Source: an uncultured Bacilli bacterium (GTDB lineage: Bacteria > Bacillota_I > Bacilli_A > RF39 > UBA660). From it: 5,084 bases of DNA. Position numbers and translations under genes: made by a program. Below the pieces are notes generated by a model. The model saw only the letters and a list, made by a program, of their open reading frames with translations. It was not told where the DNA came from and made no database searches. Below are positions 2,045 through 5,084 of this stretch, piece by piece (within the stretch, counting starts at the first letter, position 1; each line of letters begins with the position of its first letter). The stretch spans positions 1 to 5,084 of the forward strand of contig CAQBKK010000060.1 of the NCBI GenBank assembly GCA_948760655.1, read 5' to 3'.

Positions 2045-2080
2045 GTTTGTTAAAAAAGGAAATCGCCAATTTTTTGGGAA

Positions 2081-2086
2081 TATATA
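2081..2086 (+). promoter_or_regulatory. Candidate -10 element of the double-glycine peptide gene
   Basis: TATATA lies at the right distance for a transcript starting near 2092-2093, immediately before the strong ribosome binding site. No recognisable -35 box lies 16-18 bases upstream, unlike the other promoters here. If real, it could need an activator, but the assignment is weak because the stretch is a simple TA run. Confidence 0.3.
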
Positions 2087-2092
2087 TAGTGG

Positions 2093-2101
2093 AAGGGAGG
2101 T
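2093..2101 (+). promoter_or_regulatory. Very strong ribosome binding site of the peptide gene
   Basis: AAGGGAGGT matches the ideal AAAGGAGGT at eight of nine positions and sits five bases after its GGAGG core from ATG 2106. It is the best Shine-Dalgarno site in the window and is strong support that the 37-codon frame is translated. Confidence 0.8.
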
Positions 2102-2105
2102 ACGT

Positions 2106-2219
2106 ATGCATATTTTAGCTATGGATGAGTTAGAAAAAATATCGGGTGGATGTGCAATTATATTAGGAAATGCGATTCGTTTTATTAAAGTAATTTTAAA
2201 ATGTTTTCAAATACTTTAA
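2106..2219 (+). CDS. Double-glycine leader peptide (bacteriocin- or pheromone-like precursor)
   Basis: This small gene encodes 37 residues. The first 15, MHILAMDELEKISGG, match the double-glycine leader of exported class II bacteriocins and peptide pheromones: Leu at -12, Glu at -8, Leu at -7, Ile at -4, and Gly-Gly at -2/-1. Such leaders are recognised and cut after GG by ABC transporters with an N-terminal C39 peptidase domain. The predicted mature peptide has 22 residues, begins with Cys (CAIILGN) and ends KCFQIL. It carries three basic residues (R25, K28, K32) and no acidic ones, and it lacks Ser and Thr, so it is not a lanthipeptide substrate. N22, R25, K28, K32 and Q35 fall on one helical face, giving an amphipathic helix; C16 and C33 could form a disulfide. 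Its own ribosome binding site is excellent, and it lies between the enolase terminator and the promoter of the next gene. No transporter, immunity protein or modification enzyme is visible here. Whether it kills, signals or does something else is unknown. Confidence 0.75.
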   Translation: MHILAMDELEKISGGCAIILGNAIRFIKVILKCFQIL

Positions 2220-2933: not shown

Positions 2934-2938
2934 AAATG

Positions 2939-4108
2939 ATGGATAAAGATTCTAATAAAATGATAGGTTTTAATTTAAAAGAAGTTATTCTAGTAATTAT
3001 TGTAACTGCTTTGGTAACTAGTTTAACTACAGGAGTGATTGTATATAATCAAAATAAGCTTACTAAGAATTTGACTTATCAAGATTTAAATCAAGATAGC
3101 GCATTGAAAGAATTTTTGACTGTTTATGCTTCTTTAATTGATGAGTATTATGAAAACGTAGATAAGACTGCGATGCTTGAAAGTGCAATTGGTGCTATGT
3201 TTAATTATTTAGGAGAAGACTATTCAACTTATATGAATAAAGATGAATCTGATGCTTTGGCTGAAATGTTAAAAGGAGAGTATAAAGGAATAGGAATCGA
3301 GATTGATAAACAAACCAATGCTATTGCTGGTTTTATTGAAGGAGGAGCCGCAGAGTCTTCAGGACTTATGGTTGGAGATGTGATTACAAGTGTGAATGAT
3401 AGTGTTATTCAAAATGCATCTGATATTTCTTCTATCGTTGCCAAGGTAAATGTAGGAGAAAAAATCAAAATATCCGTTATTCGTGGTGAAGAAAATCTTG
3501 ATTTTTTTGTAGAAAATAAAAATTTGTTTTATCCAGTGGTTCAATCAGAAATGTTAGAAGATGGTATAGGATATTTAAAAATTAGTACATTTTCTAATAC
3601 TTTAAAAGAACAAGTTCAACTTGCTTTACAAAAGTTAGAGTCAAATGACATGCAATCTTTAATTATAGATTTAAGAAATAATACAGGGGGATATTTGGTT
3701 GCTGCTAAAGAGGTAGCCAGTATGTTTCTTGAAAAAGGGAAGGTTATTTATTCCTTAGAAGAAAAAGATGATACTAAAACCTTTAAAGATGAAACAGATG
3801 AAAAAAGGGATTATAAAATCGTTTTACTTTTTAATGAGAATAGTGCATCAGCCTCAGAGGTGTTAATTGCAGCGCTTAAAGAAAGTTATGGAGCTATAAC
3901 TGTTGGTATTACTAGTTATGGAAAGGGTAAAGTACAGCAAACTTATTCTTTGACTGATGGAAGTATGGTTAAGTATACTTCTGCTAAATGGTTGACTCCG
4001 AATGGGGATTGTATAGATGAAATTGGAATTACGCCTTCTTATGTTGTTGAGGAGACAAGAATTGATATAGATGAACAGTTAAATAAAGCAATAGAGGTAG
4101 CCAGATAG
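2939..4108 (+). CDS. ctpA: S41 family carboxy-terminal processing protease (CtpA/CtpB type)
   Basis: This 389-residue serine protease is anchored by one N-terminal helix (about 14-36) with the rest outside the membrane. A helical N-terminal region (about 50-112) is followed by a PDZ domain (about 113-192; YKGIGIEI and GLMVGDVI motifs), which in this family gates the active site and binds the substrate C terminus. The protease domain follows, with DLRNNTGG (244-251; usually DLRNNPGG). The catalytic Ser304 lies in SASASEV, Lys329 in SYGKGKVQQ exactly 25 residues later, and Gln333 four beyond, the spacing of the CtpB Ser309/Lys334/Gln338 triad. It should be active. Family roles include trimming secreted proteins and regulated proteolysis; the substrate is unknown. 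No strong promoter is evident: TATGAT (2905-2910) lacks a good -35, and TTGTCA/TAGATT (2845-2873) overlaps a hairpin. No clear terminator follows. Confidence 0.93.
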   Translation: MDKDSNKMIGFNLKEVILVIIVTALVTSLTTGVIVYNQNKLTKNLTYQDLNQDSALKEFLTVYASLIDEYYENVDKTAMLESAIGAMFNYLGEDYSTYMNKDESDALAEMLKGEYKGIGIEIDKQTNAIAGFIEGGAAESSGLMVGDVITSVNDSVIQNASDISSIVAKVNVGEKIKISVIRGEENLDFFVENKNLFYPVVQSEMLEDGIGYLKISTFSNTLKEQVQLALQKLESNDMQSLIIDLRNNTGGYLVAAKEVASMFLEKGKVIYSLEEKDDTKTFKDETDEKRDYKIVLLFNENSASASEVLIAALKESYGAITVGITSYGKGKVQQTYSLTDGSMVKYTSAKWLTPNGDCIDEIGITPSYVVEETRIDIDEQLNKAIEVAR

Positions 4109-4197: not shown

Positions 4198-4740
4198 ATG
4201 GACAATATAAAAGTAGGAGATTTTCTTACTATACATTGTTATAAACATAATGGTGTTTTGCATCGCGTTTGTGAGGAAACAGTTGTTTTGGATATTACAG
4301 ATGATTATTTAGTTTGTGCAAATGATAAAACAAAAATTACGGAAAATGATGGTAGAAGTTATCGCACAAACGAAATAGCTATCCTTATTTTCTATAAAAA
4401 GAATTGGTATAATATTATTGCTCAATTGAAAGAACAGGGATTATTTTACTATTGTAATATTGCATCTCCCTTTTTAATTGATAATCAGGTGATTAAGTAT
4501 ATTGATTATGATTTGGATTTACGTGTGTTTCCAGATGGAGGATTTCGGATACTAGACAGAAATGAATATAAGTATCATAAACGTGTTATGAATTATAGTA
4601 AGGAATTGGATCTTATTGTTAAAAGCGAATTGCAATATTTAATTTCCTTGAAAAAGGCTTCAAAAACCCCGTTTGATAAGGAATTAATTGATAATTATTA
4701 TCAAAAATATGTAAATTTGAAAAAAAATGCTAAAAATTAG
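4198..4740 (+). CDS. ntdP: Nucleoside tri-/diphosphate phosphatase, DUF402 family
   Basis: This 180-residue soluble protein has the length and motifs of the Firmicutes DUF402 family typified by Staphylococcus NtdP, which removes phosphates from nucleoside tri- and diphosphates using divalent metal. Visible landmarks are YKHNG..HR with the presumed proton donor R23, the block CANDKTKITENDGR (40-53), NWYNII (69-74) and YYCNIASP (84-91). The metal-binding cluster follows: N87, D103, D105 and D107 in YIDYDLDLRVF, then D120 and E123. All the family's metal ligands are present, so activity is expected. The start at 4198 gives the standard family N terminus MDNIKVGDF; the frame is open further back, but that would begin upstream of the promoter. 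The ribosome binding site (GCGAGAG, 4187-4193) is weak and the leader is only about 17 bases. The gene is a single unit, and its TAG lies inside its terminator, directly ahead of the rRNA promoter region. Confidence 0.9.
   Translation: MDNIKVGDFLTIHCYKHNGVLHRVCEETVVLDITDDYLVCANDKTKITENDGRSYRTNEIAILIFYKKNWYNIIAQLKEQGLFYYCNIASPFLIDNQVIKYIDYDLDLRVFPDGGFRILDRNEYKYHKRVMNYSKELDLIVKSELQYLISLKKASKTPFDKELIDNYYQKYVNLKKNAKN

Positions 4741-5034: not shown

Positions 5035-5084
<50 letters not shown>

What the first reader, a model, noticed from the sequence alone, without database searches (positions are those of the whole stretch)
2093..2219. Unannotated double-glycine leader peptide gene between enolase and a membrane protein gene
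A 37-codon frame with the best ribosome binding site in the window encodes a leader matching the GG consensus at every key position (L-12, E-8, L-7, I-4, G-2, G-1), then a short hydrophobic cationic core. Leaders of this kind direct export and cleavage by C39-peptidase ABC transporters. It falls below common gene-length cutoffs and fills a gap that would otherwise look empty. The core resembles no bacteriocin or pheromone I can name, so it may be a new family.
Basis: partly seen in the sequence, partly recalled or inferred. Interest (0 to 1): 0.85.

Follow-up and report, generated by a model that had tools for sequence, protein, structure and literature searches.

The report
Secreted peptide gene in competence regulon
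A real but unannotated 37-residue precursor gene, shaped for export through a peptide-cutting pump, carries the same unusual promoter that related bacteria use for their DNA-uptake genes and for that pump, so it looks like a secreted part of a DNA-uptake programme in uncultured gut bacteria.

Summary
Window 2106-2219 encodes a 37-aa double-glycine precursor; no such ORF appears in 400 shuffled windows. Seven relatives carry a homologue in the same place, invariant M1 L4 E8 L9 G14 G15 C16; L001/L002 dN 0.066, dS 0.79.

The new result lies outside the given coordinates. The promoter at 2055-2086 belongs to a genome-wide set: 117 matches in 23 relatives against 4 for the reversed pattern. Among 105 sites read, it precedes comEA-comEC in 19 genomes, the C39 exporter operon in 15, a thioester adhesin in 15, and mobile nucleases. 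Its -35 fits published Listeria sigma-H competence promoters; its -10 fits only partly. The exporter operon encodes two more GG peptides, one lactococcin-G-like.

Most likely: an exported peptide made during a sigma-H-type DNA-uptake programme, either a CibAB/BriC-like effector (about 0.5) or a CSP-like pheromone (about 0.35). Against a pheromone: no kinase nearby, co-occurrence inconclusive. Against classical transformation: DprA found in 1 of 23 relatives. The window's own genome is not held, so its exporter is unchecked.

The parts
2055..2063 (+). -35-like element AAAGGAAAT of the shared promoter
   Evidence: the 32-mer at 2055-2086 has 2 mismatches to the regulon consensus; next best in the window 7; 0 of 300 shuffles reach 2. 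-35 fits the published sigma-H consensus.
2078..2086 (+). -10-like element GAATATATA of the shared promoter
   Evidence: GAAT lies at the sigma-H distance; most relatives have GTATATATA or GTAAATATA here. The full published -10 consensus RRMGAAW is not met.
2093..2100 (+). ribosome binding site AAGGGAGG
   Evidence: homologues have AGGAGG/GAGGAGG/AAGGAAGG at the same place
2106..2150 (+). double-glycine leader, 15 codons (MHILAMDELEKISGG)
   Evidence: mean leader identity 0.55 over 8 homologues against 0.31 for the core
2151..2216 (+). mature peptide, 22 codons (CAIILGNAIRFIKVILKCFQIL); Cys at +1 invariant in 8 of 8
   Evidence: cleavage itself is inferred
2217..2219 (+). stop codon TAA

Best explanation
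The gene makes a double-glycine precursor that a C39-peptidase ABC transporter cuts after GG and exports, releasing a 22-residue cationic amphipathic peptide that begins with Cys (cleavage and export inferred from leader and exporter, not shown). It is transcribed from its own copy of an alternative, probably sigma-H-type, promoter that in relatives drives comEA-comEC, the C39 exporter operon with two further GG peptides, and a thioester adhesin (co-occurrence shown; recognition by sigma-H inferred). It is therefore made together with a DNA-uptake programme. I take the secreted peptide to be a programme-coupled effector acting on neighbouring cells or the cell surface, as CibAB or BriC do in pneumococcus (inferred). 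Step odds: real gene 0.99; exported GG peptide 0.9; co-regulated with DNA uptake 0.85; effector rather than pheromone about 0.5 against 0.35.
For: Real gene. Exporter in 20 of 23 relatives, 6 of 7 with the peptide. Shared promoter: 117 matches in 23 genomes against 4 for the reversed pattern; of 105 sites read, comEA in 19 genomes, C39 operon in 15, TED adhesin in 15, the GG peptide in 6 (G024's copy exceeds 3 mismatches), 83 of 105 with a ribosome-site ORF starting 10-80 nt downstream. ComEC above its NCBIfam cut-off, C39, SLBB/HHH and TED above Pfam cut-offs. -35 equals the sigma-H class and a SigH-like gene lies beside an rlmB-like ORF in 7 genomes read. In two distant relatives a GGC peptide follows peptides A and B in the exporter operon. 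For effector: patchy presence, at least 3 changes on the tree, absent from 12 of 20 loci whose kin keep comEA and C39, same promoter as late genes, no kinase beside it.
Against: No immunity gene was identified; the downstream membrane gene is kept in loci without the peptide. DprA is found in 1 of 23 relatives, so classical transformation is doubtful. The -10 departs from GAAT in most copies, and the relaxed sigma-H pattern alone turns up in 55 of 300 shuffles. G018 has the peptide but no C39 hit. The window's own genome could not be searched. Many motif sites (24 Rpn, 10 DUF1016) head mobile nuclease genes, so the regulon is not competence genes alone.
Confidence: 0.5

Rival explanations
1. 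It is a peptide pheromone of the ComC/BlpC type: exported by the C39 transporter, sensed by a HATPase_c_5 kinase with a LytTR response regulator, and self-amplifying because its own promoter is part of the regulon it switches on.
For: 22-23-residue cationic cores, leader conserved and core variable (0.55 against 0.31), no immunity gene beside it. LytTR regulators in 21 of 23 relatives; an AgrC/ComD-class kinase (PF14501, 53 bits) follows one of them in 8 of 23 genomes, among them 4 of the 7 with the peptide. L025's peptide gives a weak ComC_Streptocco score, E 0.011.
Against: No kinase or regulator gene next to the peptide; no GG peptide within the loci around the LytTR pairs. Kinase present in 4 of 16 genomes without the peptide; independent-pairs test has 3 pairs, p 1. 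G014 has the peptide and the regulator but not this kinase. ComC score far under its cut-off of 50. Peptide absent from many genomes that keep comEA and the exporter.
Confidence: 0.35
2. The peptide is a third structural partner of peptides A and B in a multi-peptide bacteriocin rather than an independent agent.
For: GGC peptide directly after A and B in G294 and G212; all three end or begin with Cys; A resembles lactococcin G beta, 32.2 bits against a cut-off of 37.
Against: A and B are found without a GGC peptide in many loci; in the window's kin the gene is unlinked from A and B. Homology of the distant GGC peptides rests on the leader and general features.
Confidence: 0.1
3. A small hydrophobic intracellular toxin or membrane peptide whose GG motif is incidental.
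For: Hydrophobic, cationic, short.
Against: Leader more conserved than core at the export positions; promoter shared with the exporter operon.
Confidence: 0.04
4. A chance ORF.
For: Short; no library model reaches its cut-off.
Against: 0 of 400 shuffles; 7 homologues; dN 0.066 against dS 0.79 for L001/L002 with nucleotide changes 4, 3, 10 by codon position.
Confidence: 0.01

Closest known systems
CibA/CibB, competence-induced two-peptide bacteriocin of Streptococcus pneumoniae
   Same: GG precursors made as late-competence genes with comEA/comEC under one alternative sigma factor (passages of PMC6560143 and PMC7595303)
   Different: Single peptide of 22 residues starting with Cys, no immunity gene seen, sigma-H-type rather than ComX-type promoter; peptides A and B of the exporter operon are the nearer parallel to CibAB
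BriC, competence-induced orphan GG peptide of S. pneumoniae
   Same: Stand-alone GG peptide, induced with competence, no two-component genes next to it (passages of PMC7595303 and PMC6560143)
   Different: BriC is an early, ComE-driven gene; no sequence likeness was tested
ComC/CSP competence-stimulating peptide
   Same: GG leader, short cationic core, C39 exporter in the genome
   Different: No comDE beside it; NF033214 not reached
Sigma-H competence regulons of Listeria monocytogenes and Lactobacillus sakei
   Same: comEA under an AAAGGAWTT-type -35 (PMC4754846 section 7); sigma-H activates comEA and comGA (passages of PMC3364868)
   Different: No GG peptides among the targets in the passages seen; here the -10 is mostly GTATATATA, and dprA is missing in 22 of 23 relatives
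Lactococcin G / enterocin 1071 two-peptide bacteriocins
   Same: Peptide A of the exporter operon scores 32.2 bits over leader and core
   Different: Below the cut-off of 37; concerns the sibling peptides, not the window peptide

Membership tests
C39-exported double-glycine peptides | leader with conserved hydrophobic and acidic positions ending in GG | tested here: met
   invariant L4 E8 L9 G14 G15 in 8 of 8
C39-exported double-glycine peptides | C39 ABC exporter in the same genome | tested here: inconclusive
   20 of 23 relatives, 6 of 7 with the peptide; the window's genome is not held
C39-exported double-glycine peptides | cleavage after GG and export | not testable with these tools
   needs biochemistry
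ComC/CSP pheromones | match to the ComC family model | tested here: not met
   no hit for the window peptide; L025 15.4 bits against 50
ComC/CSP pheromones | receptor kinase and LytTR regulator genes adjacent | tested here: not met
   neighbours are enolase and a 172-aa membrane protein
ComC/CSP pheromones | cognate receptor elsewhere, co-occurring | tested here: inconclusive
   4 of 7 with and 4 of 16 without the peptide; p 1 on independent pairs
Class II bacteriocins | match to a class II model | tested here: not met
   Bacteriocin_IIc 13.5 bits against 27.1
Class II bacteriocins | linked immunity gene | tested here: inconclusive
   downstream gene is kept in loci without the peptide; no other candidate looked for
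Sigma-H promoters | -35 RMAGGRWWW | tested here: met
   AAAGGAAAT
Sigma-H promoters | -10 RRMGAAW at N11-12 | tested here: not met
   full pattern absent in the window; GAAT alone present; mostly GTAT in relatives
Sigma-H promoters | sigH in the genome | tested here: inconclusive
   SigH-like 208-aa protein of G001: TIGR02859 99.6 bits against cut-off 294.8, NF006147 116.5 against 212; rlmB-like ORF beside it in 7 genomes read, named by eye
Natural transformation regulon | comEA-comEC under the same promoter | tested here: met
   19 genomes; ComEC 257 bits against 190, ComEA helix-hairpin-helix 59.8 against 53.1
Natural transformation regulon | dprA present | tested here: not met
   1 of 23 genomes

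The most novel reading that the evidence does not exclude
Uncultured gut Bacilli run a sigma-H-driven DNA-uptake programme without DprA in which GG peptides are exported by a co-regulated C39 pump; the window peptide is its autoinducer, so a 22-residue synthetic peptide could switch on DNA uptake in a lineage that has no genetics.
Probability: 0.2. Interest if true: 0.85.

Novelty: new variant of a known kind. Interest (0 to 1): 0.6.

Why it matters
GG peptides tied to competence are documented mainly in streptococci in the papers I saw. Here the same coupling appears in a distant, uncultured lineage, with a sigma-H-type promoter in place of ComX and with no detectable DprA in most relatives. 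If right, it gives a short synthesizable peptide to test as an inducer or effector, and a promoter motif that reads out a DNA-uptake regulon directly from fragmentary metagenome bins.

Tried and rejected

Limits: whole-genome searches are of fragmentary bins, completeness not told, so each single absence is weak. One search drew on fetched loci only, kept 105 sites, set aside 6 at contig ends and asked for GG at positions 4-5; one search listed 117. Sites were first found with a strict pattern (27 genomes) and then with up to 3 mismatches (23 genomes).

Full report
What was checked. The window carries, left to right, a DUF308 membrane protein (140-703), enolase (786-2030), the peptide (2106-2219), a 172-aa membrane protein (2285-2803), an S41/PDZ peptidase (2936-4108), a DUF402/NtdP-like protein (4198-4740) and, by eye, the start of a 16S rRNA gene. 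In 400 first-order shuffles of the window no ORF with that leader pattern arose.

Conservation. An S41 search of bacterial genomes gave five loci, and 60 relatives of one of them were searched next. A GG-leader scan found the peptide in L001, L002, L016, L018, L019, L025 and L035, with ATG starts except TTG in L002, each behind a strong ribosome site. Seven columns are invariant in the eight sequences: M1 L4 E8 L9 G14 G15 C16. Leader identity averages 0.55 and core identity 0.31; cores are 22-23 residues, net charge +3 to +4. L001/L002 differ by 4, 3 and 10 nucleotides at codon positions 1-3, dN 0.066 and dS 0.79; L018/L035 differ at only three nucleotides. Of 20 loci read, 12 lack the peptide; on a tree of three linked proteins its presence needs at least three changes.

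Promoter. Aligning the gaps showed a conserved upstream element, AAAGGAAAT-N4-AATT-N5-TGTATATATA. As a strict pattern it matched 13 of 27 genomes with no match of the reversed pattern; with up to three mismatches it gave 117 matches in 20 of 23 genomes, against 4 for the reversed pattern. In the window the site is 2055-2086 with two mismatches; the next best place has seven, and 0 of 300 shuffles reach two. Column frequencies over 112 sites are.

Targets. I read the genes downstream of 105 sites: ComEA in 19 genomes, the C39 exporter in 15, a thioester-domain surface protein in 15, Rpn nucleases 24 sites in 12, DUF1016 nucleases 10 in 4, the GG peptide in 6, RelB/DinJ 3, M16-like 2, RecA-like 1, other 10. 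83 of 105 have a ribosome-site ORF starting 10-80 nt downstream. Family scans of one representative each support C39 plus ABC domains, ComEA, ComEC/Rec2, TED plus SpaA, PDDEXK_2, DUF1016/YhcG and RelB. In G007, G008 and G024 the element is recognisable upstream of C39 by eye in a more divergent form.

Exporter operon. In the six operons first read, the order is C39 ABC transporter (683-688 aa), a 141-144-aa one-pass protein, GG peptide A (45 aa, ending CN), GG peptide B (51-53 aa, ending C); in four of them a pilin-like ORF follows in the stretch shown. Peptide A of G014 scores 32.2 bits on lactococcin G beta, cut-off 37. In an order-wide sample, 47 of 288 genomes gave a hit to the peptide alignment at E <= 0.01, many to the leader alone. 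Of 26 such loci read (L232-L257), four hold a GGC peptide of 38-40 aa by eye; in G294 and G212 it directly follows A and B, with a transporter-type ORF upstream judged by eye. In two others (G159, G265) the upstream region shows the AAAGGAAAT element again.

Sigma factor. Listeria sigma-H promoters have -35 AAAGGAWTT or GAAGGAAAT and -10 GGCGAAT at N11 (PMC4754846, section 7 read). The element here has the same -35; at the sigma-H distance stands G-T-A-T in most copies and G-A-A-T in the window. The full published pattern is not met in the window, and the relaxed one turns up in 55 of 300 shuffles, so the link rests on the regulon and not on this one site. A SigH-like protein scores on SigH models but below their cut-offs; it stands beside an rlmB-like ORF in seven genomes read, the B. 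subtilis arrangement as I recall it. In L. sakei sigma-H activates comEA and comGA (passages of PMC3364868).

Results against the simple story. DprA was found in 1 of 23 relatives, while the control rang in 11 of 14 known genomes; T2SSE ATPases are in 23 of 23, three kinds in most. So DNA uptake is likely, transformation less sure. C39 was not found in G012, G013 and G018, and G018 has the peptide. Mobile nuclease genes carry many motif copies.

Function. A kinase-regulator pair of the ComD/ComE class exists in 8 of 23 genomes, in 4 of 7 with and 4 of 16 without the peptide; the tree-based test has too few pairs to decide. In pneumococcus GG peptides within the competence programme include CSP, CibAB and BriC, and several have no adjacent receptor genes (passages of PMC7595303; PMC6560143). 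I lean to an effector because the gene is dispensable among relatives that keep the rest and carries the same promoter as the late-type genes, but the pheromone reading is close behind.

Novelty. Known kind: a GG peptide tied to competence. New here: the peptide family, the lineage, the sigma-H-type promoter and the missing DprA. Searches for print: in one open-access library only.

Noticed in passing
L044, L045, L046, L083, L089, L097 (exporter operons): Two GG peptides, A and B, in tandem after the C39 transporter, with cores far more alike between genomes than the window peptide's; A is near lactococcin G beta. Unnamed in the protein database.
   Followed up: partly
L051, L052, L055, L060, L073, L087, L096: A large thioester-domain plus SpaA surface protein is one of the three commonest targets of the promoter.
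   Followed up: partly
L054, L068, L082, L083, L090, L094 and others: Rpn-type and DUF1016-type nuclease genes, some in near-identical copies, carry the same promoter; several copies end at contig ends.
   Followed up: no
23 relatives of the window: DprA missing in 22 of 23 while ComEA, ComEC and type IV pilus-type ATPases are present.
   Followed up: partly
L285, L293: LytTR regulator without the kinase that follows its relatives in G002, G018, G023 and G024.
   Followed up: no
L089:3676-4425, L046, L083, L097: Pilin-like ORF starting MKNNNKGFIAISLIYS at the end of the exporter operon; no family hit.
   Followed up: no
L178-L227: Genomes labelled Tenericutes or Bacilli encode several sigma factors of sporulation type.
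   Followed up: no
window 5035-5084: Start of a 16S rRNA gene by eye, with the rest cut off by the window end.
   Followed up: no
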